NCBI GenBank assembly: GCA_949751835.1
Contig: CATKHK010000012.1
Location: forward strand, 1-64,000
Source of the DNA: Blepharisma japonicum
Taxonomy: Eukaryota; Ciliophora; Heterotrichea; Heterotrichida; Blepharismidae
Reading direction: 5' to 3'
Length of the DNA: 64,000 nucleotides
The notes beneath the pieces are model-generated. The model had not been told where the DNA came from and did no database searches. It saw nothing but the letters and a program-made list of their open reading frames with translations. Shown here piece after piece: positions 1,779 to 55,158 of this stretch. The position numbers and the translations under genes were made by a program. Position 1 is the stretch's first letter. Each line of letters starts with the position of its first letter.

Positions 1779-2783
1779 ATGAAAAAAAGAGAAGGCACCA
1801 CAAATCAGTATAGCCAAAATGATATTAATCAACGATTAACCCTTCAAGATCTAAAACTGAAAACCTCTGCGATTTTAAGCAGAACGAATAACGACCCAGA
1901 AACAGAGCAAGATTTCAGAAGGACTTGTGCATTGTTTGAAAATCAAAAATCTAGCCCACAACTGAAGAGAGCTTATCAAGATTATGTCAGTGCATACACT
2001 AAAATCTCGTCTCTTTATATATTATTGTGAGGTGTTTATCGGCAAGCTCGTGTGCATGTTTTTGACACTGAAAATGAAAGCAGACAAGTTTATAAATTAA
2101 AAAGTCCAACATTATCGAATTTATGAAGCACAGCTGTGATTCCAAATGGTAATTTACTCTGTTGTGGAGACTTAAAAAATCTTGGCATTGTTTTTATTGT
2201 TAATAGTGATTTTAAGGTTAAAGTTATACAAACAGGTGAGCATTGCAAACTCTACCCTTCTGCTATTTATTTAAATAGAAGCGTCTATATTTTAGGAGGG
2301 ATGACTGGCAACGGTATATCTTGGTCTAGTAAATATGATTTGGATGCAAATAGATGATTTAAATTACCTCCAGTACCAACAAATGATTTCTATTTCTCTT
2401 GTGCAATATTTAATGGGAGTATTGTAATTTCTGGATATAATAGTAGAAATCTTGTGTTTTACTCTGTTGATATTGAATCTTTCTCAACAATTCCTTATGA
2501 TTTTGAAAATAATGGAATAAAACTTCTAATAAATGCAGGGAGACTGTATTTGATTGAGTGCCTAAGATATGGTATAATTTATGAAAGCGAAGCTGAAGAC
2601 ATTTATTCGTGAAAGCAAGTAGGGGAATCGATAATAGACATGAATTGTCAAATGCATGGCTTATATAATAAAGGAAGTATCTATATCATACCAGAGGATG
2701 AAGGTCAGGGGTATTACAAATTTGATTTATCCCAAAAAACGATGTTTAGGATATCAGAGAAAAATAAGAAAGTTAAAAGGTAG
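1779..2783 (+). CDS. Kelch-like propeller family protein, plus-strand subfamily
   Basis: A 334 aa protein, continuous when UGA is Trp (codons at 2028, 2124, 2355 and 2610). Residues 1-85 are the family's helical region (LQDLKLKTSAILSR... AYQDYVSAYTKISSLY). Then come propeller strands: a kelch-type unit AIYLNRSVYILGG...SSKYDLDANRWFKLPPVP, then ISGYNSRNLVFYSVDIESF, and a C-terminal blade ending YYKFDLSQKTMFRI plus a basic tail. It belongs with 32192-33223 and 35922-36923 (DLDANRW, SAYSKIS-type helices). The usual MEPxLL start appears lost: upstream bases match the sister's codons but are disrupted, so this ATG is the first usable one. Expected role: protein-binding scaffold; partner unknown. 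Confidence 0.8.
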
Positions 2784-3343
2784 CTCTTATTTTAATGATC
2801 AATAAATTTATCATTTGATATGAGGTTTAGCTTTATCTATATTTGCGTAGATTAGATTAGTCGAGAATCTCTATTAATAGAAAAACAGTTATACAAATTA
2901 GCTCGCATAAATAAGATTATATGATTACTAAGAATGGCAATTTATTGTAAATCATGCAAAATTTATGCAGACGTATAAATGCTGCATTATTACACTTTTT
3001 TAAGACAAGGATTGATAAATAATCACAGGGGATAAGAATGAGATAGTTGTGTGTATAACTAGTCGCTACTGTTAAAGCAACATTATAAGGAGATGGTTCT
3101 CAAATAAAGGTGAGCACTAGAGCATCATATTCTGCAGAGGCTGCCTATACTTTAACTAACCTAAAATAAGTTTCATCTTAGTGCTAAGCTTAAGCAAATC
3201 AAAAATTGTTTCTTTAAATTATTGTCTTTTGTTTCTAATTATTTATAATACTTTGGCAAATTTTATATAACGCCAAGTTAAAGAAAGATTAAAAATCCAC
3301 AAATTCATATAAAATTATAAGTAAGAAAATTTTTTGAGAAATT
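2784..3343. other. 3' flank shared with other plus-strand family genes
   Basis: No gene seen. Parts of 2815-3020 (TTTAGCTTTAT.TGCAT-like, and TTGTAAATCATGCAAAA) recur after the plus-strand genes at about 33290-33560 and 36990-37210, so the flank was copied along with the gene. The remainder is AT-rich spacer. Confidence 0.5.
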
Positions 3344-3480
3344 ACATAAGTGCATTACCTTTATTATAGTATTATCGGTTCGATTTTGGTTGTTTCATTG
3401 CAACATTTTATTGATTCTTCACATCTGCCCAGTTTATCAAGATTTCTTTATTTTTGCTTCATATTTGTTCACTATGAGAA
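3344..3480 (-). pseudogene. TPR gene relic, copy A of a composite repeat
   Basis: Contains TPR-like words (RNLDKLGRCEESIKCCNE) with stops. The same relic, followed by the same 3' kelch tail, occurs at 4440-4690 and 16375-16570, so a TPR-relic plus kelch-gene unit was duplicated after the TPR part had decayed. Confidence 0.55.
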
Positions 3481-3543
3481 GTTGTAGCATACAATCCCGA
3501 TTAATTAAGCCTAAAAATATTTAGATTTTTAAAATTTTATCTC

Positions 3544-4725: not shown

Positions 4726-5766
4726 TTATATCCTAAACATTTTGTTTTGGTTTAAATCAAACTTGTGATATTGTACCCCATTATTCTCTGAAATAATATA
4801 GATCATTCCTTTATTATATAAACCATACGCTTGATAAAACGTGCTAATGTTAGATCTTGCTATCTTTTTTCATGTATATTCATCTCTAGTGTTACTTTCA
4901 TAAATAAAGCTTTTTTTTCTGCACTCAATCAAATATAATCTCTCTGCATTTATCAGGATCTTCATTGTATTATTGTTAAATTCATAAGGAATCGTTGAAA
5001 AAGAGTTGATATCAATGGAGTACAGCATAAGTCTTCTATTTTCATATCCAGAAACCAAAATATTTCCATTAAATATTATATTAGAGCAAAAGTAATCCAC
5101 AGTTGGCATTGAAGCTAATTTAACCCATCGATTTTTATCCAAATCATATTTGCTTGATGAAGCAATGATCAGATAATTGCCAAATCCTCCAAAGCGATAG
5201 ACGTTTCTATTGAAATAGACTACTGAAGATTTGAAGCAAGGCTCACCTGGTGGCAATACTCGAACTCCATAATCACTATTAATTATAAAAGTAATCCCAG
5301 GATGCTTTCTATCCCCAAAACAGAATAACTCACCATTTGGAAGTATAGCTATATATACGCAACCCTTTAGTGGATCTGGAAGCATTAGTCTATGCATTTT
5401 TTCGATTTCATTTTCAGTGCCAAAAGCATGCAAAAAATCTTTTTTGCCATCTCGATGTAATACATAAAGAGATGTTACTTTATCGTAAGAGCTGAGATAT
5501 TTTTGATAAGAATCATTGAGCTGAGCATTAGTAGCAAATTTTTGATTCTCAAGCATTTCACAAGTCTTCCTAAAATCTTGTTCTGTCTTTGGATTGTTAT
5601 CTGTTCTGCTTATAATCGCAGATGTTTTTATTTCTAGATCTTGATGATTAATAACATTTTGATTGAATTGACTTAGAGTATCCTCTGCTTGAATGTTTAT
5701 TAATTCTTCAGCAGGGTCAAGCCTTTTATTAAGTAATTTAGGCTTATTTATAGCTTTAAGTTCCAT
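4726..5766 (-). CDS. Kelch-like propeller family protein (reference copy)
   Basis: A 346 aa protein. Approximate layout: 1-95 helical region (LINIQAEDTL..., QDLEIKTSAIISR, DFRKTC.MLENQK, AQLNDSYQKYLSSYDKVTSLYVLH); 100-160 first strands with DTENE and the highly conserved LPNGELFCFGD; 165-235 a canonical kelch unit (VVYFNRNVYRFGG... SSKYDLDKNRWVKLASMP) with double Gly, Tyr and Trp in kelch spacing; 236-300 blades with NILVSGYENRRLMLYSIDI and AERLYLIEC; and a last blade YGLYNKGMIYIIS...YHKFDLNQNKMFRI. One UGA (4870-4872) is Trp in EYTWKKIA. There is no signal peptide or membrane span. Kelch propellers bind proteins; the partner is unknown. The start is set by the family's MELK and the AATCTATAAT-ATG context. 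Confidence 0.85.
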
Positions 5767-7486: not shown

Positions 7487-8608
7487 CTATAGCTTAAACA
7501 TTTCATTTTTGTTTAAATCGAACTTGTAATATACACAATCATCTGATTCGGTTATGATATAGATTCCACCTTTATTATATAAGCCATATGCTTGATTATA
7601 ATTGCTGATGATTGATTTTCCTATTTTGTCTCATTTATATCCATCTCCAGCTTGGCTCTCATAAACAAATCCACCATTGAACTCAATCAAATATAACTTC
7701 CCTGCATTTATTAAAATCTTTTTTGCATTCCTTGCAAAATCAGAGAAAATTGTTGAGAAAGAGTCAATATCAATAGAATATAGAAAAAGATCTTTACTAC
7801 TATATTCAGTAATCAAAATATTCCCATTACATATTACACTATTGCATAAACAACCAGCTATTGGCATTTTTTGTAATGTAACCCATTTATTTTTATCCAA
7901 ATCATACCTCGTAAAGTGATTCGAGGCACTTAAAACATAACCGTCTCCTCCATAGCAATAGATATTTCTTTTGAAATAGATTGGCGAAGCATAAAGATAT
8001 TTATCTGATTTTATCTCTCGAAATTTATAATTACTATCAATAATAAATAAAGCTGCATGATGAAAGCAATATCCATACCAGAATAACTTATCTCCATTTG
8101 AAAGGGCAGTTAAGCATGCCTTACCTCGGAATGCTTTTGGAAACTTCAATGCAACAGATTTATAGCTCTCTTCTTCAGTGTCATAAGATTTTAAAATTGC
8201 TATCTTATAGTTGTTACCATAGATTAGCCTGTAAAGAGAAGTGGCTTTATTGTAAGCTTTAACGTATTCATGGTAAGATCTTTGGAGTTCTGGGTTAGGA
8301 GTAGGGTTTTTTTTCTTATTTAATGCTTTACGTTTTTTAAAATCTTGCTTTGATTTTTTGTCAGGAGCAGGATATGTTTTCTGAAATATAGCGCAAGCTC
8401 TTCTGAAATCTAGCTCTGCTTTTGGGCTATTATTGACTCTGTTTATTATCTCAGATCTTTTCATTTCGAGATATTGAGGAGCTAAGATCTGATTAATAAC
8501 ATTTTGATTAGGGAAATCTTTTGTTTCCTCTTGCTCGTTATCTAGTTCTTCAACTGAGTCAAGTAAGAAATTAAGCAAGTTGAGTTTAGCCTGAGTTCTG
8601 GATTCCAT
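7487..8608 (-). CDS. Kelch-like propeller protein with N-terminal insertion
   Basis: A 373 aa protein, one of the longest family members. Between the DFRRACAIF helix and the ELQRSYHEYVKAYNKATSLY helix it carries about 25 extra Lys-rich residues (around KQDFKKRKALNKKKN). The gene at 30400-31530 has a similar insertion, so the two form a subgroup. The kelch unit is intact (IYFKRNIYCYGG...TRYDLDKNKWVTLQKMP). One UGA is Trp in DGYKWDKIG. The C-terminus is YYKFDLNKNEMFKL. The ATG at 8608 begins MESRTQAKLNLLN; the upstream context is TTTATATT-ATG. Confidence 0.85.
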
Positions 8609-11578: not shown

Positions 11579-12637
11579 CTAATATATCTTAAACATTTCT
11601 TTTTTGTTTAAATCAAATTTGTAATAATTCGCTCCACTTCTGTGTGCTATAATGTAGATTCCTTCTTTATTGTATAAACCATACGCTTGAAAAGGTTCTT
11701 TAATAATTGATGTTCCTATTTGTTTTCATACATATTCATCTTCAGCTTCGTTTTCATAAATTAAACCATTTTCTGTGCACTCAATTAAATACAATCTATC
11801 TGCTTTTACTAGAAGCTTTTTTGTATAAGCTGTAAAATTGTATAAAATTATTGAGAAAGAATCGATATCAATTGAATATAACAAATGATTTTTATTTTCA
11901 TGTCCAGAAATCAAAATATTTCCATTAAATATTACACTAGAACACCAGTAATCATATATTGGCATTGGAGTTAATTTAACTCAACGATTTCTATCCAAAT
12001 CAAATTTGCTGGATGAATTTAAAGCAAATGATTTATTCACTCCTCCAAAACAATAAACACTTTTATTGAAATAGATAGCTGAAGATTCTATGCAAGGCTC
12101 GCCTGTTGACAACAATCGACATTCAAAATCACTATTAAGTATAAAAGTACGTCCAGGATGTCTCATATCCCCAAAAAAGAATAACTCACCATTTGGAAGT
12201 ACAGTTATACATATTCTATTAGTTAACTCCTCTGGAACTTTTAATTCGACAACTTTTGTTGCTTCTTTTTCAGTGTCAAAAATATGTAAATATGTTTTTG
12301 CGGAATAATATCAGTGTATTAAATAAAGAGATGTGATTTTATGGTAATCTCGAATGTATTTTTGGTAAGCTTCATTGAGCTGAGAGTTAGAATCAGATTT
12401 TTGACTCTCAAACAGCACGCAAGTTCTTCTAAAATCTTGTTCTGTATTTGGATGATTATTGGTTCTGCCCAAGATTACAGAACTTTTGATTTTTAGATCT
12501 TGAGGGGATAATAATTGATTAATATCATTTTGATTGGACAGACTTTGGGTGTCTTCTCTTTGTTGAGATATAAATTCATCAGAAGATCCAAGTTCGGCAT
12601 TAAGCAATTTGAGTTTATTTAGACCTTTGAGCTCCAT
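11579..12637 (-). CDS. Kelch-like propeller protein, recent duplicate 1
   Basis: A 352 aa protein, intact with UGA as Trp (LIHWYYS, NRWVKLTPMP, EYVWKQIG). Starts MELKGLNKLKLLNAELGSSDEF; kelch unit IYFNKSVYCFGGVNKSFALNSSS then KFDLDRNRW. Almost the same protein as the next gene upstream (13201-14295), and the first ~70 bases of 5' flank match too. The reading ends MFKIY-stop, one residue beyond the usual MFKI. Confidence 0.87.
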
Positions 12638-14480: not shown

Positions 14481-15554
14481 TTATATATAAAAGGTGTCTC
14501 TTATCTTATGCATTTCTTTTTTGTCTAAATGAAATTTGTAATAGCTTATTTCATGGCTGAATGCTATAATATAGATCCTTCCTTTATTATATAAACCATA
14601 TGCTAGAGGCGTCGATATAGTAATTGATGATGCTATTTGTTTTCATGAATATTCGTTTCCTACTTCGTTTTCATAAATTAAACCATTTGGTTTGCACTCA
14701 ATCAAATACAGCCTCTCTGCATATACCAGGAGCTTTTTTGCGTATAATGCAAAGTCGTAAGAAATTGTTGAGAAAGAGTCGATATCAATTGAGTATAACA
14801 AAATATTTTTACTTTCATATCCAGAAATCAAAATATTTCCATTAAATATTACGCTAGAGCACCAGTAATCATATATGGGCATTGGAGTTAATTTAACCCA
14901 CTTATTTTTATTCAAATCAAATTTTCTGGATAAATTTAAGTAAAAAGAGCTCTTCACTCCTCCAAAGCAATAGACATTTTTATTGAAATAGATAGCTGAA
15001 GATGCGCTGCAAGATTCGCCTATTGGTAACACTTGGACTTCATAATCACTATTAAGTATACAAGTAAAACCAGATTGTATTCCATCTCCAAAACAGAATA
15101 GCCTTCCATATGGAAGTACAGTTAGGCATGCGTTATTGGCTGACGATTCTGGAACTTTTAATTTAATAATTTTTGAAGTTTCTTTTTCAGTATCAAAAAT
15201 ATGCAAAAAAGGATTTTTGCTATAGCATCAATATATTAGATAAAGAGATGTGATTTTATGGTAATCTCGAATGTATTTTTGGTAAGCTTCATTGAGCTGT
15301 GAGTTAGAATCAGATTTTTGACTCTCAAACAGTGCGTAAGTATTTCTGAAATCTTGTTCTATATCTGGCTGATTATTTGTTCTGCTTAAAATTGCAGATC
15401 TTTTGATTTCTAAATCTTGAGGGGTTAATAATTGAATGATTTCATTTTGATTGAACTGACTTTGTGTTTCTTCTCTTTGTTTAATTATAAATTCTTCAGT
15501 GGATCCAAATTCCTTATTAAGCAATTTGAGTTTATTTAGACCTTTGAGTTCCAT
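14481..15554 (-). CDS. Kelch-like propeller family protein
   Basis: A 357 aa protein of the same subgroup as the two genes downstream (MELKGLNKLKLLN, SDSNSQLNEAYQKYIRDYHKITSLYLIY). Kelch unit AIYFNKNVYCFGGVKSSFYLNLS then RKFDLNKNKWVKLTPMP. The start context is shortened to TTTAAT-ATG. The C-terminus reads EMHKIRDTFYI, slightly longer than most. UGA is Trp after SLYLIY and in EYSWKQIA. Confidence 0.85.
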
Positions 15555-17985: not shown

Positions 17986-18432
17986 TTATATCATAAACAT
18001 TTTTTTTGAGTCTAAGTCAAACTTGAAATACATTTCCTCGAATTTTTCTGCTCTAATATATATTCCTCCTTTATTATATATGCAATAAGCTCGATAAAAA
18101 TAATCAAAGTTTAACTTTCCTATTTCCTTTCAAGAATACTCATCTGTTGCTTCGCTTTCATATATCAAAGCATCCTTTTTACACTCAATTAAATACAATC
18201 TCTCTGCATTTATCAGGATCATTCTTGACGTCTCCGCAAATTGATAAGGAACAGTTGAAAAAGAGTTGATATCAATTGAATATAGTAAAATATTTTTATT
18301 TTTGTATCCATAAATCAAAATATTTCGATTATATATTACGTTGTGGCATAAGCGATGATTTACTGGCATTGGAGTTAAATAAGCCCATCGATTATTGTCC
18401 AAGTCAAATCTGCTAGATAAATTCAAAGACCG

Positions 18433-18672
18433 ATAATTGGAGTTTAGGTAAAGAACTTATAGGAGTCCAGTGAAGAGTGAGGCAATATTTTGTGAGGATT
18501 GATGGCTAGGCAAGTAGTTCCATAAAAAACTCTATTATTTCTGATGCAAAATAGCAGCAGAAGAAATAGCCCGCAAAGTCACAGTCTGATTTTGAAAGAG
18601 TGAGATTATGAAGACTTAAATCACTCTTTGGAACCAAGCGGAGCGCTAAATATTAATTGGGTAAGTTAGTAA
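18433..18672. repeat. Insert inside a kelch-family pseudogene
   Basis: About 240 bases foreign to the family, with more G+C than the gene. It contains perfect 9-base inverted repeats AAAGAGTGA (18595-18603) and TCACTCTTT (18621-18629). It codes for nothing recognisable. It replaces roughly 45 bases of gene, so this is not a clean insertion. Confidence 0.45.
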
Positions 18673-18924
18673 GAAGAGTTAGAACAAGGCCTACCTGATG
18701 GTAGTAGTCGAATTTTATAATCACTATTAATTATAAACGTAATACCAGAATGAATTCGACTCCCATAACAGAATAACTCACCATTTGGAAGTACAGCTAT
18801 ACAAGTAAAACTGTTAAATAATTCTGGAGCTTTCAATTCAATAGAGCTAACAATTTCTTCTTCAGTGTCAAAAACATGCAAAAATGTTTTTTGATTCTCT
18901 GTCTCATATTTTAGCATAAAAAGA

Positions 18925-19165
18925 GAGCTTTTGTTTATAATAAAGTTGAATTTTTAGAACTTTGAAGTTTTTAACTTTCTTCAAATTAGAAAAGTTTTTT
19001 CCATTTAAAAGAGCAAACTCTAACTGTAATAACCAGATACTGCAAAAATCAGACTCTCAAGCTTAACAATTTGCATGGTAAATAGCTTTCTTTTGAGAAG
19101 GACTCTCAAGAAACCCAAAATTTCTCTCACTCAGTCCTTGCTAAGGATTATACCCTTAATAGATA
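18925..19165. repeat. Second insert inside the same pseudogene
   Basis: About 240 bases without family sequence, carrying two direct copies of GACTCTCAAG (near 19050 and 19105). It replaces the codons for the KITSLY helix end. Origin unknown. Confidence 0.4.
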
Positions 19166-19453
19166 TTCCATTTTATATTGAGTGTGATAAGCTTGATTAA
19201 GTTGTGGGTCAAAAGCAGAATTTTGACTTTCATATAATGCACAAGTTCTTCTAAAATCTTGCTCCGTTTCTCAATCATTATTTGTTCTGCTTAAAAGCAC
19301 AGCTTTTTTTATTTCTAGATCTTGAAGGGTTAATAATCTAGAATTTTGGATGAGATAGCTTTGAATATCATCTGGCTGATTAATTAGAAATTCTTTAGGA
19401 GGCTCAAAAACATAATTAAGCAAGCAGGGTTTATTTTGCTCCTTGTGTTCCAT

Positions 19454-20201: not shown

Positions 20202-21248
20202 TTATAGCTTAAGTATTTCTTTTTTATCTAAATCAAATTTATAAAACTGCACCTCTGCATTTTCACCAGATATAATATAGATCTTTCCTTTATTGTATAA
20301 ACCATACACTTGAAAAGGCATATTAATTATCGATATTGCTATTTGTTTTCATGCATATTCATCTCCAGCTTCGTTTTCATAAATTCAGCCATTTGCTTTG
20401 CACTCAATCAAATACAGTCTCTCTGCATTTATCAGGAGCTTTTTTGTATAACTTTCAAAATTGTAAGGAATTGTTGAGAAAGAGTCAATATCAATTGAAT
20501 ACAGTAAAAGATCCCTACTAAAATATCCAGAAATCAAAATATTATCATTAAATATGACAGCAGAACACCAGTAATCATTAATTGGCATTGGAGATAATTT
20601 AATCCACCGATTTGTATCCAAATCATATTTGCTGGATAAATCTAAGGCAAAAGAACTCCTCGCTCCTCCAAAGCAATAGACATTTCTATTTAAATAGATA
20701 GCTGAAGATTTGGAGCAAGGCTCGCCTCTTGGCAGCATTCGAATATCAAAATCACGATTAAGTATAAAAGTAATTCCAGGATTGTTCCATTCTCCAAAAA
20801 AGAATAGCTCGCAATTTGGAAGTGCAGCTAGACATGTTGCATTGCTTAGTATTTTTTGATTTTGTCATTTATTAACTGTTGCGCTTTCTTTTTCAGTGTC
20901 AAAAACATGCAAAAAAGTGCTTTGCCTATAATCTCAATGCAATATATAAAGAGATGTGATTTTGTGATAAGCACTGATATATTTTTGGTAAGCTTCATTG
21001 AGTTGCGAATTAGAATCTGATCTTTGATTCTCAAATAATGCGCACGTTCTTCTAAAATCATGCTCTATTTCTGGACTGATATTGGTTCTGCTTAAAATCG
21101 CAGATGTTTTTATTTCTAGATCTTGATGATTAATAACATTTTGATTGAGATGACTTAAAGTATCCTCTGCTTGATTTCGTCTCAATTTTTCAGTTGGGGC
21201 AAGTCGACCATTAAGCAATTTGAATTCACTAAGAGATCTAAATTCCAT
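20202..21248 (-). CDS. Kelch-like propeller family protein
   Basis: A 348 aa protein, continuous with several UGA-Trp codons (LHWDYRQ, NKWQNQK, KANGWIYENEAG, EYAWKQIA). Starts MEFRSLSEFKLLNGRLAP; the helical region has INHQDLEIKTSAILSR without the LLTP words. Kelch unit AIYLNRNVYCFGGARSSFALDLS then SKYDLDTNRWIKLSPMP; ends FYKFDLDKKEILKL. Start context CAATAATAAT-ATG. Confidence 0.85.
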
Positions 21249-34169: not shown

Positions 34170-35246
34170 TTATAATCATGTCTCTACTTTAAGAATTTTT
34201 TTGTCTAAATCAAATTTGTAATAATCCATCCCATCATTATCTGTTATAATATAAATATTTCCTTTATTATATAAACAATTCGTTCTATAAGGCATGCAAG
34301 TAACCGATTTTGCTATTTTATTTCATTCATATACATCTCCAGCTTCGTTTTCATAAATTGAGCCATCACTTCTGCACTCAATCACATACATTTTCTCTAC
34401 ATTTATCAAGAGCTTTTTGGTATAATTAAGAAAATTATAAGGAATTACTGAGAAAGAGTCGATATCAATTGAGTATAGCATAAGATTTCTGTTTCCGGTT
34501 CCAGAAATCAAAATATTATCATTAAATATTACACTAGAGCACCAGCAATCCTTTATTGGCATTTCAGCTAATTTAATCCATCTATTTTCATCCAAATCAT
34601 ATTTGCTAGAAAAAGCACAAATTTTATTATCTTTCATCGCTCCAAAGCAATAAACTTTTCTGTTGAAATAGATAGCTGAAGTTGAGCCACAAGGATCGCC
34701 TGGTGGTAATACTTGAACTTCATAGTCAGTATTAAGCATAAAAGTAAACCCAGGATTTTTTCATATCCCAAAAAAGAATAATTCAAAATTTGGAAGTAGG
34801 CACATGCATATGTCATTTGTGTTTTGCCATGGATTTAATGGCTCTAGATCTTCTATTTTACGTCTTTCTTCGACTTCATTTTCAATGTCAAAAATATGCA
34901 AATAAGCATATTGGTTGTTATCTCAATTCAATATATAAATCGATGCGATTTTATGGTAAGCACTGACATATTTTTGATAAGCTTCATTGAGCTGAGAGTT
35001 AGAAGTTGATTTTTGATTCTCAAAGAAGGCACAAGTTCATCTGAAATCTTGTTCAATTTCTGGGCTGTTATTCGTTCTGCTTAAAATTGCCAATGTTTTC
35101 ATTTCTAGATCTTGAGAGGTTAATATTTGATTAAAATCATATTGATTGAGTTGACTTTGGGTGTCTTCTCTTTGTTTAGCTATATATTCCTCAGCCTTAA
35201 AACCAGTATTAAGCAATTTGAGTTTACTTCGCGCTTTGAATTCCAT
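34170..35246 (-). CDS. Kelch-like propeller family protein
   Basis: A 358 aa protein, MEFKARSKLKLLNTGFKAEEYIAKQREDT. Continuous with UGA as Trp (DFRWTCAFFEN, LNWDNNQ, FGIWKNPGF, VETWL). Kelch unit AIYFNRKVYCFGAMKDN...SSKYDLDENRWIKLAEMP, where GG is GA. Its closest relative is 37499-38545 (EMPI.D.WCSSV, RNLMLYSIDIDSFS.IPY). Ends ILKVETWL, unlike the usual MFKI. Confidence 0.85.
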
Positions 35247-39069: not shown

Positions 39070-40136
39070 TTAGCGATATCATTTGTTCTCTTGTATCTTA
39101 TGCATTTCTTTTTTATCTAAATCAAATTTATAAAACTGCAATTTATTTCCACCTAATATGATATAGATCCCTCAATTATTATATACGCAATATGCTTGAA
39201 AAGTCATTCTAATAATTGATATTGCTATTTTTTCCATACATACAAATCTCCATCTTCGTTTTCGTAAATTGAACCATTTTCTGCACACTCAATCAAATAA
39301 AATTTGTCTGCTTTTATCAAGAGCTTTTTTATATCATTTGCAAAATTGCAAGAAATCGTTGAGAAAGATTCTATATCAATAGAATATAGCAAAAGATTGT
39401 TGCTTGCACATCCAGAGACCAATATATTTTCTTCAAATATTACACTAGAACACCAGAAATCATTTATTGGCATTGGAGCTAATTTAATCCACCGATTTTT
39501 ATCCAAATCATATTTGCTGGAGAAATTTGAGGAATAAGAGCCCTTAGTTCCTCCAAAGCAATAGACATTTCTATTGAAAAAGATAGCTGAAGACTTTCTG
39601 CAAGGCTCACCTACTGGTAAAGCTCGAACTTTATAATCACTATTAAGTATAAAAGTAATCTCAGGATTTTTTCAATCCCCAAAACAGAATAACTCAGCAT
39701 TTGGAAGTACAGCTAGGCATGTGCAATTGCTTAAAGATTCTGGGACTTCTAATTTAATAGTTCTCAGAGTTTCTTTTTCAGTGTCGAAAATGTGCAAAAA
39801 TGTATTTTTGCCAATATCTTAATCTGTTACATAAAGAGATGTGATTTTATGGTAAGCACTAATGTATCTTTGGTAAGCTTCATTGAGCTGTGAGTTAGAA
39901 TCAGATTTTTGACTCTCAAATAGTGCGCAAGTTAGTCTAAAATCTTGTTCTATATATGGGTCATTAGTTGTTCTACTTAAAATCGCAGATCTTTTCATTT
40001 CTAGATTCTGAGGGGTTAATAGCTGATTAATATTAGTTTGATTGAGCTGACTTTGAGTGCCTTCTTTTTGTTTAATTATAAATTCTTCAGTGGGTTCAGA
40101 CTCCGTATAAAATCATTTGAATATTTTTTGACCCAT
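39070..40136 (-). pseudogene. Kelch-family gene with one stop and one frameshift
   Basis: Nearly complete. UAA stands where the sister has UGA (Trp) just after SLYVTD, and one A is missing in the A-run of VWKKIAIS near 39235. Everything else reads in family register, including AIFFNRNVYCFGGTKGSYSS then SKYDLDKNRWIKLAPMP. The N-terminus (MGQKIFKWFYTESEPTEEF) is unusual: family codons 8-14 are altered. A young pseudogene. Confidence 0.75.
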
Positions 40137-40519: not shown

Positions 40520-41960
40520 TAATAATTATTTATTTAAATATGTAAAATGCAAGCATGCCGAAGTTTTATAATTATTACTTTCAAAAGGGCATCTGTCTTA
40601 AATATTAATAATTTTTTCTCTTATATAAATTAAACATTTTCTTCTTACTTAAATCAAACTTGAAATACTCCAATCCTCCATAAGTTTCTAAAACAATATA
40701 GATTCCTCCTTTATTATATATCCCAAACATTCGGCTAGAATAGCAAGTTGATTTTCCTATGATTTTTCAAGAATACACATCTCCAGCTTCGTTCTCATAA
40801 ACATATCCATGTCATTTGCACTCAATCAAATATAATTTCTCTGCATGTATCAGAAGCTTTCCTGTGTTCTCTGCAAAATTAAAAGAAATTATTGAGAAAG
40901 AGTCAATATCAATTGAATATAGCAAAAGATTTTTATTTTTATATCCAGAAATCAAAATATTCCTATTAAATATAACACTATGAAAAGTTTTATCATCTAT
41001 TGCCATTAGAGCTAATTTTACCCATCTATTTCTGTCCAAATCAAATCTACATGAAAAATTTGAGGCACTATTATGAATATATATTCTTCCAAAAAGATAG
41101 ATATTTCTATTAAAATAGGTTGATGAAGAATACATTCAAAGCATTCATTGTGGTAATATTCGAGCTTTATAAGTGCTATCTATTATCAATGCAATGTCAG
41201 AAAGCATTGAATTTTCACAAAGGAATAGCTCACCATTTGGAAGTCGAGTTATGCGTACGGTATCACCCAGCTGTTCTGGAACTTTCAATTCAATCCGGCT
41301 AGAGCTTTCTTTTTCAGTGTCAAAAACATGCAAAAACTTTTTTCGATAAGTTCTAATTCCATCAGATTGAATGCTATAAAGAGTCGTGATTTTATGGTAA
41401 GCTTTCTCATATTCCTTATAAGCTCTCTTGAGCTGTGGGCTAGAAGAAGATTTTTGATACTCATATAATAAGCAAGTTCTTCTGAAATCTCGTTCTATTT
41501 TTGGTTCATTACTAGCTCTTTTTAAAATCGCCAATTTTTTGATTTCTAAATCTTGTGGGGTTAATAATTGATTCATAGTGCTTTCATTGAGATAACTTTG
41601 TGTAGAATCTATTTGATTATTTATAAATTCTCCATCAGAATCAAATTTGGAATTTAGTAGCTTGATATCCATATTATAAATTGCAGAAGCACTTGAAAAT
41701 TTAATGTTTTACTATATTTTTGTAAGTAGATAATTTTAATTTTGATTATATATTTAAATCTACAGCATGAATTTTTTTCGTTATTTTTACAATTTCTAGG
41801 CTCATTTGGTGAAAACATTTTTTTCGTTGTAACTTTGAGAAAAATAATTGGTTCAATTTAAAGAGATTCACCATATTTTGATCCAACTTAAAGGATGGGT
41901 TGAGTCAGAGTGTAGACTGGTCCTTTTTCAGAGTTGATTCTTTACTTCTTGGAATATTAA
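40520..41960. repeat. Segmental duplication, copy 2 (partner 22020-23460)
   Basis: Near-copy of the 22 kb segment in gene and flanks (shared TGCAAGCATGCCGAAG-type 3' flank and GATTCTTTACTTCTTGGAAT 5' flank). The copies part near 41960. Confidence 0.75.
40605..41672 (-). CDS. Kelch-like propeller protein (MDIKLLN subgroup), copy 2
   Basis: A 355 aa near-twin of 22084-23151: same start MDIKLLNSKFDSDGEFINNQ, same divergent strand TYFNRNIYLFGRIYI, same missing second Gly. Differences are scattered substitutions (ISGYKNKNL here; ISRYKNKNL there). Intact with UGA as Trp (PQWMLWMYSSS). Both copies open suggests both are, or recently were, under selection. Confidence 0.86.
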
Positions 41961-42149
41961 AACAGTACCGGAACTTTCCCTATGGCTGCACATAATACTA
42001 TCAGCACTTACTTATCGTGATACTGGGGGTAAACATTCTAGACAATGTGTTTTCTTTATGAGATGATATAATTTAAACTCTTATAGGATCTTTAGCAGTA
42101 ATATCTTTGCTTATTGAGCATGCCACTTAAGCTTCTGATTTTCTAATAA
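41961..42149. other. Spacer beyond the duplication edge
   Basis: Nothing recognised. Confidence 0.35.
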
Positions 42150-42310
42150 AGTCCAATTAAAAATTTTGTAGTTAAAATTTTCTATGCTGCAATATAGATC
42201 CTCTTTTATTAAATAAACAAAAACTTCAAAAAACCTCAATTATTGATTTTGCTATTTGTTTTCAAGTATATTCATCTTCAGCTTAGCTCTCATAATATTT
42301 GTTTTAGCAA
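42150..42310 (-). pseudogene. 3' fragment of a kelch-family gene
   Basis: Traces of the last blade and an EDEYTWKQIAKSII-type strand remain; the rest is gone. Heavily decayed. Confidence 0.5.
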
Positions 42311-42784
42311 TTGAATTTTAAAAAATACGAGAGTCGCATTATTTTATAGGAATTTTCAAAAGAATTGTTTACTTTAACGAAAATATTTATCAATTCGCTT
42401 CCATTTATTATCAAATATAACTTATTTGCTCAAACAAATATTTTAATAGACAAATTTTAAAATAAAATTGAAATGCAAAAGTAAAATTAAATAAAATTCT
42501 TAAATCAGCATTACTAAATAAAGTTAATAGAATTAAGTTTGAGTTGCTCCAAAATAAAAGATTAAACTGTCAGAATAAATATATAGAAATCTATTATTAA
42601 TAAACTAATATCCAAATATAAAGTCCGATTAAACAAAATTTGCAAGTTATCCTAATTTTTTAAGATAATATATATTAACTCTTTATCAGATGATCATTAA
42701 TCTCTAAATTATTATCAAAAGAAAAGTGTATTGTAGTTTTACTTACTTATCAGAGTTTCTCTTAAATATTGACAATTATATTTC
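42311..42784. other. AT-rich spacer
   Basis: No gene. 42600-42740 resembles 25740-25920, the 3' flank of another copy. Confidence 0.4.
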
Positions 42785-43843
42785 TTATATCGAAAACATT
42801 TTTTTGTCTGCTAAATCAAATTTGTAATAGCATAGCCGATGAATGTTTTCTATTTTTTCTATAACATAGATCTTTCCTCTATTATATAAGCCATATACTT
42901 GTCTAGAATTGCCAGTAATTGAATTTCCAATTCTTTTCCAAGAATATACATCTCCAGTTTCGCTTTCATAAATCAATCCATTCATATGACACTCTATCAA
43001 ATACAATCTTTCAGCATTTATCAGGAGTTTTATTGCATTGCATGCAAAGTCATAAGAGATTTCTGAGAAAGCGTCAATATCAATTGAATATAATAAGAGT
43101 TTTCTATATGCTCTTCCAGAAATCAAAATATTTCTATTAAATACTACGCTATTGTTTCAATAATCAAATCTAGGCATTGAAGCTAACTCAATCCATCGAT
43201 TTTCATCCAAATCAAATCTATGGGATAATACGAAATATTCTAAACATTCAATCACTCCTCTAAAGCAATAGACACTTCTATTGAAATAGACAGCTGATGA
43301 GTATCAGCAAGGAGCTCCTAATGGCAACACTCGAGCTTTATAGTCACTATCTATAATCAATGCAATACCAGAATCGTTTCAATCCCCATAGCAGAATAAC
43401 TCACCATTTGGAAGCAGAGTAATGCATGCGCCACTACTTAATGGTTTTGGAGCCTCCAGTTCATAAATGCTTTCAATTTCTTTTTCAGTGTTAAAAACGT
43501 TCAAAATAGTATTTTCTTGATTATCAAATAGTAAATAAAGAGATGAGATTCTGTCGTAGGAATTTATATATTCTTGATAAGCTTCTTTAAGCCTAAGATT
43601 AGTAAGAGAATTATGATTTTCATATAATGTGCAAATTCTTCTGAAATCTTTCTCTGTTTCTGGATTATTATTGGTTCTGCTTAGCATCTCAGATCTTTTC
43701 ATTTCTAGATATTGAGGAGTTAATAATTGAGTATTTTGATTGAACTGATTTTGAGTGCAATCTGCTTGATAATTTATAAATTCTTCAGCAGGGTCAAATA
43801 AGTAATTAAGCAAGCTGAGTTTATTTTGAAGTCTAAATCCCAT
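42785..43843 (-). CDS. Kelch-like propeller family protein
   Basis: A 352 aa protein, MGFRLQNKLSLLNYLFDPAEEF. Intact with UGA as Trp (GDWNDSGI, CWYSSAV, DYWNNSVV). The kelch strand is VYFNRSVYCFRG, with Arg for the first Gly, then SHRFDLDENRWIELASMP. Last blade VYGLYNRGKIYVIEK...CYYKFDLADKKMFSI. Start motif TAATCTATAAT-ATG. Confidence 0.86.
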
Positions 43844-45339: not shown

Positions 45340-46374
45340 TTATAGCTTAAACATTTCATTTTTGCTTAAATCAAACTTGTAATAATTAAGCATGCCTCCA
45401 TCTGTTCTAATATATATTTTGTCTTTATTATATAAGCAATAGGCTTGAAAATTATATCCAATTAATGATTTTACTATTTGTTTCCAGCCATACTTATTTT
45501 GAGCTTCACTCTCATAAACGAATCCATTTTTATTACATTCAATCAAATATAATCTTTCTGCTTTTATTAGGAGTTTTCTTGTATTCTCCAAAAATTCATA
45601 AGAAATTGCTGAGAAAGAGTTGATATCAATTGAATATATCAAAAGATTTTTACTAAAATATCCAGAAATCAAAATATTTCTATCAAATATTAAACTATTG
45701 CAACCTTTTTCATGTATTGGCATTGGAGTTAATTTAACTCATCTATTTTCATTCAAATCAAACCTGCTAGATAAAGCTAAATAATTATAATGTTTATCCA
45801 TACCTCCAAAGCAATAAACGGTTTTATTGAAATAGATAGCTGAAGCATACCTGCAAGGCATTCCAGATGGTAGCACAAGAGTTTTGTAATCCTTATCAAT
45901 AATCAGCGTAATACCACTATTTATTTTATCCCCATAGCAGAATAATTCGCGATTTGGAAGCTTAGCTATGCATGCACCTCTGCTTGGTGACGCTGGAGCA
46001 CTCAAAGTAATAATTTGATTACTTTCGTTTTCAGTATCAAAAACATCCAAGAAAGCCTTTGTAGCATCTTCTCATATATAAATAGATGTGAGTTGATGAT
46101 AAGCGTCAATATATTCTTGGTAAGCTCTCTTTAATTCTCCATTAGAAATAGATTTTTGTTCCTCATATAACGCACAAGTTCTCCTGAAATCCTGCTCTAT
46201 ATCTGGATCGTTATTGGTTCTATTTAAAATCATAGATCTTTTCAGTTCTAGGTCTTGAGGAGTTAATAATTGAGCATTTGAATTGAGAAGGGTCTGATTT
46301 TCCCCTCTTTTGTTATTTGGAGTTTCTTTATCTGAGCCAAATAAGAAATAAATTGATTTGAGTTTATTTCCCAT
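45340..46374 (-). CDS. Kelch-like propeller family protein
   Basis: A 344 aa protein. The start is taken at MGNKLKSIYFLFGSDKE (46374), the family position; an ATG four codons further out is also in frame. Intact with UGA as Trp (YIWEDATK). LPNRELFCYGD, kelch unit AIYFNKTVYCFGGMDKHYN then SRFDLNENRWVKLTPMP; last blade YCLYNKDKIYIRTD...NYYKFDLSKNEMFKL. Confidence 0.86.
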
Positions 46375-46909
46375 ATTAAATTGCATAAGTTCTAAAAGTT
46401 TAATTTTTAGCTATAATATTCCAAACTAAAACGCAGGTGTTATAGATCATTGTAAAGATTGTTTGCAACAGTTAGATATATAAAATATTTTTACCTTAAA
46501 TTACCTCATTAATTTTCTAATTTATTTTCATAAATATATATAACTCATATAGACTAGCATTGACTATCAGCTCTCATTAATATGTGGTAAATTTTAGCAT
46601 GCATCACATGATGATTCTTTAAATAATAAGCAGCACTAATAAAATAAATTATTTCAGATGTTTATAAGAATCAAAAAGGTCTATATTAATTACTAAACAA
46701 TTTATAACCTAAATCAGGCTTTTTGATTCTTCATCTCATTATTTAAGCTTGTAGCTCTATTTAAGCAGTGATATCAGATGATTATTAATTCTTTATTTAT
46801 TAAAAAATAAGATATTTTATTTTATTCACTCATTTGAAGCCTAAATATTTATAATTTATTATTCAAGCATAATCATGTGCTTTTTTAAAAGATCAATTTT
46901 GAATTTATA
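46375..46909. other. AT-rich spacer
   Basis: Nothing recognised. Confidence 0.4.
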
Positions 46910-47484: not shown

Positions 47485-48543
47485 CTATTTATTATTTAAG
47501 CCATATCCATCTGACCTAGATCAAAATTGAAATTGTCTGGGATAAAAAGTATCTGTTACGGCATAGATTCCTCCTTTATTATATAAACAATACGCTTGGC
47601 TAGAGAATTCAATTGGTGATTTTCCTACTATTCATCAAGAATACTCATTTTCAACTCCGCTTTCATAAACAAATCCACCTGCTCTGCACTCAAATAGATA
47701 TAATCTCTCTGCATTTATTATAAGTTTTCTTGTCTGCCTTGCAAAATGATAAGGAATGACTGAGAAAGATTCTAAATCAACCGAATACAACAAAAGATTT
47801 CTATTTTCGCATCCTGAAATTAAAATATTCCTATTAAATATTACACTATGGCATAGCTTATCATTTGTTGGCATTGGAGCTAACTTAAATCATCGATTTT
47901 TATCTAAATCAAATCTCATAGATAAAGGTAAAATTCTATATTCATTATCAATTCCTCCAAAGCAATAGACATTTCTATTGAAATAGATAGCTGAAGACCA
48001 ATGACAACGGGCTCCTGATGGTAATATTCGAGCTTCATAATTAATTCCAATTATTAGAGTAATGCCAGAAAATTTTAGATCCCCAAAGCAGAAGAGCTCA
48101 CGATTTGGAAGTACAGCTATGCATGTTACACTACTCAATTTTGTTGGAACCCTCAATTCAATTTTTTTACTTTTTTCTTCTTCCGTGTCATAAACATCCA
48201 AAAAAGTTTCATTATCCCTACCAAATAGATAAAGAGATGTGATTTTACGGTAAGCTTTAACATATTTTTTAAAAGCTGCCTTAAGCTGTTTGTCAGGATT
48301 AGAATTTTGAACCTCATATAATGCACAAGTTCTTCTAAAATCTTGCTCTGTTTCTGGGTCGATATTGATTCTGTTTAAAAGAACAAATCTTTTAATAATT
48401 AGATATTCAGGGGTTAATATTTGGTTAGTAGCACTTTGATCGAGCAGAGATTGAGTAGGGCCTGCTTGGTGATTCAGAATTTCTTCAGTAGGGTCTGTTA
48501 AGTAATTAAGCAAATTAAGCTTATTGTTATAATTAAGCTCCAT
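47485..48543 (-). CDS. Kelch-like propeller protein with altered C-terminus
   Basis: A 352 aa protein, MELNYNNKLNLLNYLTDPTEEI. LPNRELFCFGDLKFSGITLII, kelch unit AIYFNRNVYCFGGIDNEYRILPLS then MRFDLDKNRWFKLAPMP. Near the end it reads EYSWWIVGKSPIEFSS (UGA twice), and the usual YYKFDLxKKxMFKL tail is replaced by FQFWSRSDGYGLNNK before UAG. The switch suggests a late frame change close to the stop. Probably functional. Confidence 0.8.
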
Positions 48544-49049: not shown

Positions 49050-50126
49050 CTAATAATATGACGAGCAAATTTTTGATAATTTTCTTTGCTTTAAATCAAA
49101 CTCATAATATTCTATTGCATAATTTTCTGTTAAAATATAGACTTTTCCTTTATTATATGAATAATACACTTGAGAAGTGCTTCCAATTGGTGATTTTGAT
49201 ATTATATTTCAAGCATATTCGTCTCCTGGATCACTCTCATAAATTAACCCACATTCATCTGTCTTGCACTCAATTAAATACAATCTACTCGCATTTATCA
49301 ATATCTTTATTGTATTCTCTGCAAATTCATAAGGAATCGTTGAGAAAGAGTTAATATCAATTGAATATACCAACAGACTTCTACTTAAACGTCCAGCAAT
49401 TAAAATTTCCTCATTATATATTATGCTATGGCAACTGTAATCATCTATAGGCATTTTAGCTAATTTATCCCATTGATTTTTATCCAAATTAAATTTGCTA
49501 GAGAAATTTAAAGGCATACACAGATAATCAATTCCTCCAAAGCAATAAACATTTCTATTGAAATAAATAGCTGAAAAGTTTTCATAAGGCATGCCTTCTG
49601 GTAACATTCGAGCTTTATAATCGCTGCTTATTATCATCGCAAGTCCTGGATGATTTCAATTCCCAAAGCAAAATAACTCACAATTTGGAAGAAGAGTTAT
49701 GCATGCATCATGGTCTAATAGTTCTTTTATCTTCAGCTTATAAATTTTTTGGTTTTCTTTTTCAGTTTCAAAAACGTGTAAGAAGGTTTTTTTATCATCT
49801 CTATCACAATCTAATCTATATAGAGATGTGATTTTATGGTAAGCGTTGACATATTCTTTATAAATTCTCTTAAGGTATAGATTAATTGTAGATTTTTGAT
49901 TCTTGTACAATGCACGAATACTTCTGAAGTCTCGCTCTATTTCTTGATTATTATTTGCTGTGTTTAAAATTGTGGATCTCTTCATTTCTAAATATTGAGG
50001 GGTTAATAGTTGGCTTATTGCATTTCGATCACTTTGGGTGTCCTCTGTTACATTATTTATTATTTCTTCAGCAGGGCCAAGTAAAGAATTAAGCAATTTG
50101 AGCTTCTTTTGAGTTTTGAGCTTCAT
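49050..50126 (-). CDS. Kelch-like propeller family protein
   Basis: A 358 aa protein, MKLKTQKKLKLLNSLLGPAEEI. Intact with UGA as Trp (GNWNHPGL, EYAWNIISKS). LPNCELFCFGN, kelch unit AIYFNRNVYCFGGIDYLCMPLN then SKFNLDKNQWDKLAKMP. The tail is YYEFDLKQRKLSKICSSYY. Similar in its C-terminal blade to 54094-55158 (YCSYNK/YYSYNK, YYEFNL/YYEFDL). Confidence 0.86.
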
Positions 50127-50129
50127 AAT

Positions 50130-50740: not shown

Positions 50741-50849
50741 CTTGAGGACCTTCCATAATTGGGAATATGATAATTCTATTTTTATGATTTATAGCTACAT
50801 CGTCATGAATCTGATAAAATCTCCATTAAAAGATCATCATATATTAATA

Positions 50850-52498: not shown

Positions 52499-52720
52499 TA
52501 TTTCGCACTTCTATTTTCTGGTGTTATTTATATCCCTCCTTTATTATAATTTGCACTCAATCACATATAATTTTCCAACATTTATTAGTATCTTTCTTGC
52601 AAACATATCAAATTTATAAGGAATTGTCGAGAAAGAGTCAAGATAAATTGAATATAGCAAAAGATACACATTTGCCTATTAGTTCAGAAATCTCTAATTT
52701 ATACATCCATATAATTTATT
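52484..52720 (-). pseudogene. Kelch-family relic fused to the GTPase pseudogene
   Basis: Pieces of the last blade (KGGIYITPENRSAKYYNFDL order on minus), the LENVGKLYVIECK strand and a YSIYLDSFSTIPYKF strand, with large gaps. Ends near 52720. Confidence 0.55.
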
Positions 52721-52895
52721 TCCTGGAAATTGTCTTCATCCTCGATCGATGGTGCTCAGTTCGATCAAAGATCGGAAAGGGTGAATAAGAGGAAAAATAA
52801 TGGTTTTGCTCATTATTATATGGGAGAAGCTGGACTAAAGAAATAAAGACTATAAATATTTAAAAAAGAGAATATTTTTTATGTATTTTACTATA

Positions 52896-53885
52896 TTAAG
52901 TTTTACCTTTAAAGCTTGATAATTTCTTTTGGCTTAAATCAAACTTGTAGTATTCTATCTGAAAATCTGATGCAATATATATAGCTCCTTTATTATATAA
53001 GCAATGCATTCCCCCCAAATATGCTATGATTGATTTTCCTATTTGTTTTCAAGCATACTCATTTCCATCTTCGCTCTCATAAATCAGCCCATTCCTATTG
53101 CACTCAATCAAATACAATTTCTCTGCTTTTGCTAGAATCTTTAATTGATACTCTTCAAACTCATTAGAAATTGTAGAAAAAGAGTCGATATCAATTGAAT
53201 ATAATAAAAGATTTCTACTGTGATATCCAGAAATCAAAATATTTCCATTAAATATTACACTATTACAAGAGTGATCATATATTGGCATAGGAGTTAATTT
53301 AAATCATCGATTTTTATCCAAATCAAATCTCGCAGATAAATTTAAAGATTTACCATACTTATTATATCCTCCAAAGCAATAAACATTTCTATTGAAATAG
53401 ATAACTGAAGATCTATAGCAAGAAACTCCTGGTGATAAAACTCGAATATTATAATCATTATCAATTATAAACGTAGCTCCAGTTAGTTTATCATCTCCAA
53501 AGCAGAATAACTCACAATTTGGAAGCAAAGTTTGGCATACATTATGGTTAAATGGTTCTGAAACACTCAACTCATATATACTCTCGCTTTCTTTTTCAGT
53601 GTCAAAAAGACTCAAAAATGGCATTTGAAGTATAAAATCCTTTCCTAGTAGATAAAGAGATGTCATTTTATGATAAGCGTCAATATATTCTTGATAAGCT
53701 TGATTGAGTCGTGGGTTAGAAGCAGACTTTTGAATATCATATAATGCACAAGTTATTCTGAAATCTTGCTCTGTTTCTGGGTTATTATTCGGGCTGTTTA
53801 ATATAGCAGATCTTTTTATTTCCAGATCTTGATGGCTTTGGTTAAAACAAATGATGATTCTTGTTAAATCACACTTTAGCCACAA
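52896..53885 (-). pseudogene. Kelch-like protein gene lacking its N-terminus
   Basis: The propeller is intact to the UAA at 52896 (kelch unit VIYFNRNVYCFGGYNKYGKSLN then ARFDLDKNRWFKLTPMP; tail YYKFDLSQKKLSSFKGKT), and the frame is open for 330 codons. Upstream of HQDLEIKRSAILNS the family N-terminus is replaced by unrelated codons with no ATG in frame. The first in-frame Met (KMTSLYLL) would drop the helical region. Truncated by rearrangement; dead, or a propeller-only protein. Confidence 0.65.
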
Positions 53886-54093
53886 CTATTTACTGGCAAT
53901 CAATAACCTCTTTGAATGGGAGGCTTGTTGATTTTGCCTCCTTTGCGTTGTAAAAGGTGAATAGCTTAAATATATGAATTTAAAATTAAACCCTTAATAA
54001 TAAAAATAATCAAGAATCAGAATTTGAATAAATGTAAATGCTTATTTTCTTAATCGTCTATTAAGCTGTCATTGCATAGCTATATCATTTCTT
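53886..54093. other. Short spacer at the rearranged 5' end
   Basis: GCTTGTTGATTTTGCCTCC matches flanks seen near 5930 and 17780, so the break at 53885 joined family flank to the gene body. Confidence 0.35.
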
Positions 54094-55158
54094 TTAAATC
54101 AGGTTAAACTCATAGTATTCTATTTCATAATTTCATGCTAAGACATTAATTTTCTTTTTATTATATGAGCAATACATCGGCCAAGAGCCTCCAATTGATG
54201 AGTTTGCTATTTTATTCCAAGAATACTCGTCTCCGGCCTCACTCTCATAAATAAATATGCAGTTATCTTCATCATATTCTATCAAATTCAATCTCTCTGC
54301 ATTTATTATGATCTTTTTTGCATATTTTATAAACTCATAAGGAATTGTTGAGAAAGAGTCAACATCAATTGAATATACCAAAATATCGCTGCTATGAGAA
54401 CCATATATCAAAATTTTTCCATCAAGCACAACGCTATAACAATTGTTATCATATATTGGCATCTGAGTTAAGTTAAATCATTTGTTTTTATCCAAGTCAA
54501 ATCTGGCAGATAAAGCCAAATTGTAATAATTGTCATTCGTTCCTCCAAAGCAATAGACATTTCTATTGAAATAGATTGCGGATGAATACATACAATGGAC
54601 TCCTGATGGCAATACTCTAACTTTATTGTTTTTGTCAATTATTAATGTAATACCAGTAAAATTTCTATCCCCAAAGCAAAATAATTCGCCATTTGGAAGT
54701 AGAGCTATGCATGTTTCATGGCTATCTACTGTTGGGCTTTTATTGTTTAAGAGCTCTGGAAGCGTCAGCTCATACATTTTTTCCCTTCCTTTTTCAGTAT
54801 CATAAGCACATAAAATAGTTTGATCTCATTCTGGATCATAATCTAATCAATAAAGAGATGTGATTTTACAGTAAGCACTTACATATTCTTTATATGCCTT
54901 TTTGAGCTGAGGTTTATAAGCAGACTTTTGATTCTTGTACAGTGAACAGATTCTTCTGAAGTCTTTTTCTGTTTCCGGATCGTTAGTAGTTCTTCTTAAT
55001 ATTTCATCTCTTTTAGTATTTAGATATTCTGGATCTAATATAAGATGTTTTTGGTGGAGCTGAATTTGATGAAAATTTGTTTCATTATTTATAAACGTTC
55101 CAGCCTTGCCAAATTGGAAGTTCAGTAAATTGGGCTTATTTTGAGCTCTGAATTCCAT
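54094..55158 (-). CDS. Kelch-like propeller family protein at the array's edge
   Basis: A 354 aa protein, MEFRAQNKPNLLNFQFGKAGTF. Intact with UGA as Trp (LDWSEWDQ region, FKLTQMPIY preceded by NKW, LAWNYEIEYY). LPNGELFCFGDRNFTGITLII, kelch unit AIYFNRNVYCFGGTNDNYYNLALS then ARFDLDKNKW. Ends YYEFNLI, shortened by a few residues. The usual TATAAT-ATG context is missing: a LINE-like remnant begins within two bases upstream of the ATG. Confidence 0.83.

What the first reader, a model, noticed from the sequence alone, without database searches (positions are those of the whole stretch)
1779..55158. Tandem array of ~38 kelch-like genes in 54 kb
One family occupies nearly the whole accessory region: 21 intact copies, 5 nearly intact, about 12 broken. 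Single-exon genes of ~345-375 codons, mostly same strand. Such a dense lineage-specific expansion suggests diversifying recognition, for example mating-type, self/non-self or substrate-adaptor roles. The function itself is inference.
Basis: partly seen in the sequence, partly recalled or inferred. Interest (0 to 1): 0.8.

Follow-up and report, generated by a model that had tools for sequence, protein, structure and literature searches.

The report
Hypervariable kelch recognition genes in ciliate
A single-celled ciliate carries a dense cluster of kelch-propeller genes, part of a family of a few hundred, whose likely protein-binding face differs from copy to copy while the supporting frame is much more constant, as in variable receptors of immune or self/non-self systems in animals and fungi.

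Summary
The array is real: 37 family copies (21 intact, 5 nearly intact, 11 broken), 34 on one strand, single frames with UGA as Trp, in a Blepharisma-like genome. It is about a tenth of a family of roughly 240-390 copies, enriched at contig ends. In the sampled tree the window copies form one group (96/96), so they expanded in place. AlphaFold gives three helices plus a six-bladed kelch propeller (pLDDT 88, Keap1/KLHL fold). Amino-acid change concentrates in the b-c and d-a loops, the substrate-binding face of KLHL20: all 11 such loops vary more than all 11 opposite loops, in the array and in a contig-end set. In the end set that face has omega 2.0, but the N-terminal module there also exceeds 1 (1.4), so the excess is not confined to the face. 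In the array omega exceeds 1 only at pre-chosen face sites among close copies (1.8, p 0.017, follow-up test). Elsewhere the module is fused to U-box (three), kinase, or a zinc-finger/coiled-coil stretch. Best reading: a diversified bank of intracellular recognition modules, probably tagging or signalling on fast-changing, likely foreign proteins. Expression and targets are untested.

The parts
1779..2783 (+). intact copy K1779, 334 aa
3550..4389 (-). broken copy (pieces 3550-3754, 3750-4106, 4330-4389)
4726..5766 (-). intact copy K4726, 346 aa
7205..7407 (-). C-terminal fragment
7487..8608 (-). intact copy K7487, 373 aa
10232..11287 (-). intact copy K10232, 351 aa; structure modelled: helices 45-101, propeller 103-350
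11579..12637 (-). intact copy K11579, 352 aa
13201..14295 (-). intact copy K13201, 364 aa; recent duplicate of K11579 (95% DNA over 1.24 kb)
14481..15554 (-). intact copy K14481, 357 aa
16579..17703 (-). intact copy K16579, 374 aa as listed
17989..19453 (-). broken copy with insertions, frameshifts and stops
20202..21248 (-). intact copy K20202, 348 aa
21629..21955 (-). fragment
22084..23151 (-). intact copy K22084, 355 aa
23670..23943 (-). N-terminal fragment
24407..25483 (-). intact copy K24407, 358 aa
26030..26836 (-). broken copy with many stops and frameshifts
27390..27896 (-). broken C-terminal half
28143..29213 (-). intact copy K28143, 356 aa
30415..31530 (-). nearly intact copy, one in-frame stop
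32240..33223 (+). nearly intact copy, N-terminal start lost (ATG frame from 32318)
34170..35246 (-). intact copy K34170, 358 aa
35922..36923 (+). intact copy K35922, 333 aa
37499..38545 (-). intact copy K37499, 348 aa
38662..39014 (-). C-terminal fragment
39094..40121 (-). nearly intact copy, one stop and one frameshift
40605..41672 (-). intact copy K40605, 355 aa; recent duplicate of K22084 (93% DNA over 1.45 kb)
42126..42483 (-). C-terminal fragment
42785..43843 (-). intact copy K42785, 352 aa
44136..45177 (-). nearly intact copy, N-terminal frameshift and stop (ATG frame 44136-45068)
45340..46386 (-). intact copy K45340, 348 aa
46937..47207 (-). broken N-terminal fragment
47485..48543 (-). 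intact frame K47485, 352 aa; last ~20 residues diverged
49050..50126 (-). intact copy K49050, 358 aa
52547..52672 (-). short fragment
52896..53831 (-). nearly intact copy, N-terminal ~45 residues not found
54094..55158 (-). intact copy K54094, 354 aa

Best explanation
The array is a locally expanded bank of (by absence of any obvious targeting signal, cytosolic) recognition proteins. Each is a three-helix domain followed by a six-bladed kelch propeller whose b-c and d-a loops form a hypervariable face on a constrained frame. Shown by computation: the architecture, the one-sided variability in two sets, omega above 1 at that face in the contig-end set, in-place expansion of the array, spread of the family with enrichment at contig ends, recombination among end copies, and fusion of the same module to U-box, kinase and zinc-finger/coiled-coil stretches. 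Inferred: each copy binds a different, fast-changing target; fused members mark or signal on the target directly (ubiquitin ligation by U-box members); the bare array copies work as adaptors or decoys through the helical domain. The most likely pressure is intracellular parasites or other non-self proteins. New specificities would arise by duplication, loss and, near contig ends, recombination.
Against: No transcript, protein or partner data. In the array as a whole omega is 0.82 over the face and 1.25 (not significant) at pre-chosen face sites. In the end set omega is also above 1 in the N-terminal module (1.43, p 0.018; nine complete copies) and 1.04 there by parsimony, so the excess is not confined to the face and the module may be relaxed or the estimates raised by low synonymous change there. 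The opposite loops of the end set are not different from neutral (0.84). 16 of 37 copies are damaged. Five array copies scanned carry no catalytic domain. The B-box reading rests on a Cys/His pattern with no Pfam match, and AF2 gives that part low confidence. No recombination signal in the array (p 0.57, 0.16). Nothing shows that the targets are foreign.
Confidence: 0.57

Rival explanations
1. Self/mating recognition: the diversified propellers distinguish conspecific partners or their own strain's proteins (fungal het-gene style) rather than parasites.
For: Same geometry of selected sites as the Podospora HNWD incompatibility proteins: pairs in the d-a loop and the b-c turn on top of the propeller (PMC1805685, passages).
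Against: No mating-related gene recognised in the window; no secretion signal apparent by eye in the translations (not computed). Known Blepharisma mating signals are gamones (recalled).
Confidence: 0.13
2. Adaptors for the cell's own many substrates: paralogues sub-functionalised to bind different endogenous targets, without an arms race.
For: Kelch propellers commonly serve E3 ligases; U-box fusions exist here; array strands are under clear constraint.
Against: Omega above 1 at the binding face of the end set and heavy gene turnover in the array fit changing targets better.
Confidence: 0.15
3. Neutral junkyard: duplicates drift, and long loops vary because they are unconstrained.
For: 16 of 37 copies damaged; array face omega 0.82; N-terminal module of end copies not constrained on average.
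Against: Strand and opposite-loop codons have omega 0.41-0.53 in the array; opposite loops are much less variable; omega 2-3.4 at the face in the end set; eight Cys/His kept in 14 of 14.
Confidence: 0.08
4. Hypervariable codons come from a targeted mutation or conversion process rather than from selection.
For: In the end set variation falls in short codon windows between nearly invariant flanks; recombination among end copies.
Against: A codon-blind process should raise synonymous change too, but S per codon in the variable face is close to that of the strands (0.67 vs 0.61 in the end set, 2.77 vs 2.88 in the array).
Confidence: 0.05

Closest known systems
Podospora HNWD (het-d/het-e) NACHT/WD-repeat family
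   Same: Beta-propeller with diversifying sites in the d-a loop and the b-c turn, on the interaction face; multigene family with pseudogenes and a homogenised frame (PMC1805685, passages).
   Different: WD40 repeats exchanged within and between genes, and a NACHT domain, there; here kelch blades and variation between paralogues, no NACHT in the 14 family proteins scanned.
Fish finTRIM / TRIM5-like families
   Same: Large duplicated family, zinc finger plus coiled coil plus a recognition domain whose loops are under positive selection (PMC2657112, abstract and passages).
   Different: B30.2 recognition domain and RING there; here a kelch propeller with a U-box or B-box-like finger; no RING match in the 14 family proteins scanned apart from a sub-threshold RING/U-box match in the U-box member.
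BTB-Kelch (KLHL) proteins and Plasmodium K13
   Same: Same propeller fold and, for KLHL20, the same loops forming the substrate surface (PMC6720452, passages).
   Different: No BTB in the 14 family proteins scanned; in K13 the BC/DA pocket is the most conserved part (PMC6650413, passages), here it is the most variable.

Membership tests
Kelch-repeat beta-propeller | six-bladed propeller of four-stranded kelch blades | tested here: met
Kelch-repeat beta-propeller | kelch motif by Pfam | tested here: met
   At least one kelch model over its cut-off in 3 of 5 window copies scanned; the other two only below cut-off (best E 0.017 and 3e-10)
BTB-Kelch (KLHL) | N-terminal BTB domain | tested here: not met
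   No BTB match in 5 window copies (E<=1) or in 9 relatives (E<=0.05)
F-box-Kelch | N-terminal F-box | tested here: not met
   No F-box match in the same 14 proteins
TRIM | RING-B-box-coiled coil | tested here: inconclusive
   Eight Cys/His invariant in 14 of 14 and a long helix predicted, but no Pfam RING or B-box match (HMMER drops most matches above E 0.1)
U-box E3 ligases | U-box domain | tested here: met
   Three relatives elsewhere in the genome (L033, L056, L057); none in the five array copies scanned
HNWD-type NLR | NACHT NTPase | tested here: not met
   No NACHT match in the 14 family proteins scanned
HNWD-type NLR | diversifying sites in the b-c and d-a loops of a propeller | tested here: met
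   In the propeller of the end set omega 2.0 on that face, 0.67 and 0.84 elsewhere. The N-terminal module is also above 1
Any immune-receptor family | ligand binding and defence phenotype | not testable with these tools
   no expression, binding or infection data

The most novel reading that the evidence does not exclude
A free-living ciliate has an intracellular immune or non-self repertoire of a few hundred genes: a single kelch recognition module with a hypervariable face, plugged into interchangeable effector ends (U-box ligase, kinase, zinc finger/coiled coil, perhaps TPR, or none), renewed by recombination near chromosome ends and by tandem birth and death in arrays such as this one.
Probability: 0.4. 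Interest if true: 0.92.

Novelty: new variant of a known kind. Interest (0 to 1): 0.77.

Why it matters
Variable-receptor repertoires are known from animals, plants and fungi (fish and fungal examples; plants recalled). My searches listed none for ciliates with a kelch scaffold (an open-licence library only). If this holds, the face that binds substrate in KLHL20, and is most conserved in K13, has here become a variable surface coupled in some members to ubiquitin or kinase modules in a single cell. It gives a concrete list of genes and residues with which to ask how a ciliate tells foreign from own proteins.

Tried and rejected
Tiny introns as the cause of 'broken' copies: rejected. Prokaryotic relatives: 55 stretches matched a pattern, none confirmed by tblastn. 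B-box by Pfam: no match listed for five N-termini; the AF2 model of one B-box-like member gave that region low confidence, so I did not use it. Recombination inside the array: not found. Omega above 1 over the whole variable face of the array: not found; the test on 11 close copies was a follow-up after that and is not corrected for repeated testing. A paired sample of contig starts against interiors could not be fetched, so end bias rests on listed search hits: 40 of 91 non-window rows (51 on contigs bracketed at 200 kb or less were set aside) and 76 of the first 100 listed of 255 matches (24 are in the window; a few listed rows are probably chance matches), with contig lengths partly bracketed by size order. 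The bias is weaker when neighbours are merged: 14 of 31 clusters (p 2e-6), only 8 of 41 (p 0.04). Long fused copies lying nearer ends is a modest finding (11 of 16 against 18 of 52, p 0.022; 23 rows on small contigs set aside). The end set of 13 was chosen for mutual closeness from 25 family frames in the 20 loci; 4 of the 13 were dropped from the recombination test and because they are incomplete or short. Fetched loci were partly chosen for long frames, so module proportions are not representative. Strand and loop limits come from one model. The fixed-omega fits held kappa at its fitted value. The 30 sites were chosen for being variable in the same set, so their diversity is descriptive only.
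Full report
WHAT IS THERE. The window is bases 1-64,000 of contig 12 (615,521 bases) of a 45.2 Mb assembly in 224 contigs. Three things point to a Blepharisma-type heterotrich ciliate macronuclear genome: TGA is read as Trp in the copies, a number of contig ends carry the repeat CCCTAACA (168 matches, first 100 listed), and both features are those reported for Blepharisma stoltei (PMC9942806, passages). The species itself was not identified, and the start of the window shows no telomere repeat. The intact family members are single frames of 333-374 codons. There are 37 copies: 21 intact, 5 nearly intact, 11 broken, 34 of them on the minus strand. The two closest pairs share 1.24 kb at 95% and 1.45 kb at 93% DNA identity, about one gene with short flanks. 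In a tree with 31 copies from elsewhere in the genome, the 21 window copies are one side of a branch (96/96). The array therefore grew in place, as far as this sample tells.

HOW LARGE THE FAMILY IS. Two protein queries saturate the search: 116 of 1,090 and 115 of 1,029 candidates were scored, and all but one and all but three of the matches have E below 1e-68. Two back-translated motifs give whole-genome counts: 255 matches with 4 in the reversed control, 24 of them in the window, and 180 with 5 in the control, 18 of them in the window. Scaling by motif sensitivity in the window (24 and 18 of 37 copies) or in the first 20 fetched loci (16 and 18 matches against 25 family frames) gives roughly 240-390 copies (my arithmetic). 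Hits are enriched at contig ends: on contigs over 200 kb, 17 of 40 non-window hits lie within 15 kb of an end against 2.7 expected, and 15 of 76 non-window hits among the first 100 listed against 4.5. Merging neighbours weakens this to p 2e-6 and p 0.04.

WHERE IT VARIES. I counted synonymous (S) and nonsynonymous (N) changes per codon by parsimony on trees for two sets: the 21 intact array copies, and 13 contig-end relatives chosen for mutual closeness from 25 family frames in the 20 loci. Strands and loops were taken from the model. N per codon in the array is 11.6 on the b-c/d-a face, 4.9 on the a-b/c-d face and 5.3 in strands. In the end set it is 4.4, 0.8 and 1.2. S per codon on the face is close to that in strands (2.8 vs 2.9; 0.67 vs 0.61) and lower in the opposite loops (2.1; 0.29). 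All 11 loops of one face exceed all 11 of the other in both sets (a complete split has a chance of 1 in 705,432, my arithmetic; the call's own approximate test gave p 4e-5 for each). Of the 30 most variable propeller codons, 26 (array) and 25 (end set) lie on that face, and 17 are shared between the sets against 3.6 expected. In the end set the variation sits in short windows between almost invariant flanks. At 30 sites chosen there for variability, 13 sequences show 13 combinations and differ on average at 25.4 sites.

SELECTION. With a maximum-likelihood codon model (GY, UGA as Trp, fixed tree), the face has omega 2.01 in the end set (p 1.6e-5 against 1). The 30 positions picked beforehand from the array have 3.44 (p 9e-7), and the 26 of these on the face 2.82 (p 1e-4). 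Strands have 0.67 (p 0.008) and the opposite loops 0.84 (not different from 1). Against a simple reading, the N-terminal module of nine complete end copies has omega 1.43 (p 0.018; finger alone 1.67, coiled part 1.36, neither significant), and the helical domain 0.62 (p 0.08); parsimony gives 1.04 for the module, with few changes of either kind (N 0.95 and S 0.22 per codon against 4.4 and 0.67 on the face). So omega above 1 is not confined to the face, but the sheer rate of amino-acid change is. In the array the strands have 0.45 (p 1e-24), the opposite loops 0.41 (p 6e-9) and the whole variable face 0.82 (p 0.02, below 1). Positions picked beforehand from the end set have 1.13, and those on the face 1.25, neither significant. 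In a follow-up on the 11 closest array copies the face positions reach 1.81 (p 0.017) while the whole face has 0.88 (not significant). Positive selection is thus supported for the end relatives and only suggested for the array, whose deep divergence weakens the test. A compatibility test finds recombination in 9 end copies (p 0.001) but not in the array (p 0.57, and 0.16 in nine close copies).

WHAT THE MODULE IS ATTACHED TO. In fetched relatives the same helical domain and propeller follow a U-box and a coiled-coil-like stretch (L033, U-box E 1.5e-18; L056 and L057, single frames of 600 and 611 aa, U-box E 6e-18 and 6e-17) or most of a protein kinase domain (L050, E 8e-39). Fourteen carry an N-terminal finger with eight invariant Cys/His, 14 of 14; the one modelled shows a long helix after it, partly at low confidence. 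Two at one locus are followed by a stretch that reads as TPR repeats (L054; my reading of the translation, not scanned). The finger resembles a B-box by spacing, which I recall rather than tested; Pfam lists no match. Because the loci were partly chosen for long frames, the proportions are not representative.

READING. [quoted passage not shown] In K13 the same loops are the most conserved part (PMC6650413, passages). Here the pattern is reversed. Reversal at that face, on a more constrained propeller frame, in two separately expanding sets, is what a repertoire of recognition modules with changing targets should look like. The U-box and kinase fusions say what may happen after binding. The closest parallel in evolution is the Podospora HNWD family, with selected sites in the d-a loop and the b-c turn of a propeller (PMC1805685, passages), and, for architecture, the fish finTRIMs (PMC2657112, abstract and passages). 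Defence against intracellular non-self is my preferred pressure; mating or self recognition and endogenous adaptors remain open. Expression, partners and targets are untested.

NOVELTY. A search for Blepharisma with kelch found two papers, by title and abstract unrelated. Searches combining ciliates, kelch, gene-family expansion, selection and immunity listed nothing of this kind among the papers shown. The library lacks most subscription papers, and supplements of the Blepharisma papers were not read. The search listing counts no 'kelch' in either of the two Blepharisma genome papers; of these I saw passages and, in the second, one section. I file it as a new variant of a known kind.

Noticed in passing
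323-1069 (-) and 6522-7025 (-): Two TPR-repeat genes (Pfam), 77% identical in DNA over 467 bases, beside and within the array; family relatives at L054 have a TPR-like stretch after the propeller (by eye).
   Followed up: partly
50784-51413 (+) and 52055-52498 (+): An Arf-family GTPase (Pfam E 6e-46) followed by a frame whose second half reads by eye as a degenerate relative of it.
   Followed up: partly
G000 contigs 78 and 165: U-box genes are themselves clustered: C78 has 8 of 50 matches, 7 of them within 63-106 kb; C165 has 5 of 50.
   Followed up: no
56789-58891 (+): 700-aa frame with a sub-threshold bacterial-type globin match near its C-terminus (E 0.0016, 19.1 bits against a cut-off of 21).
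   Followed up: no
59028-62454 (+): Beyond the array the strand switches and ordinary-looking genes follow: a replication-factor-C-like frame and a RING-like frame (both by eye, not scanned) and a PP2C phosphatase (E 3e-7).
   Followed up: no
G000:C12:605697-609075: The other end of the same contig also carries family members.
   Followed up: no
L053 (G000:C36:63500-70000): Another tandem group of family copies: three frames of 295 aa and one of 132 aa, with shortened N-termini.
   Followed up: no
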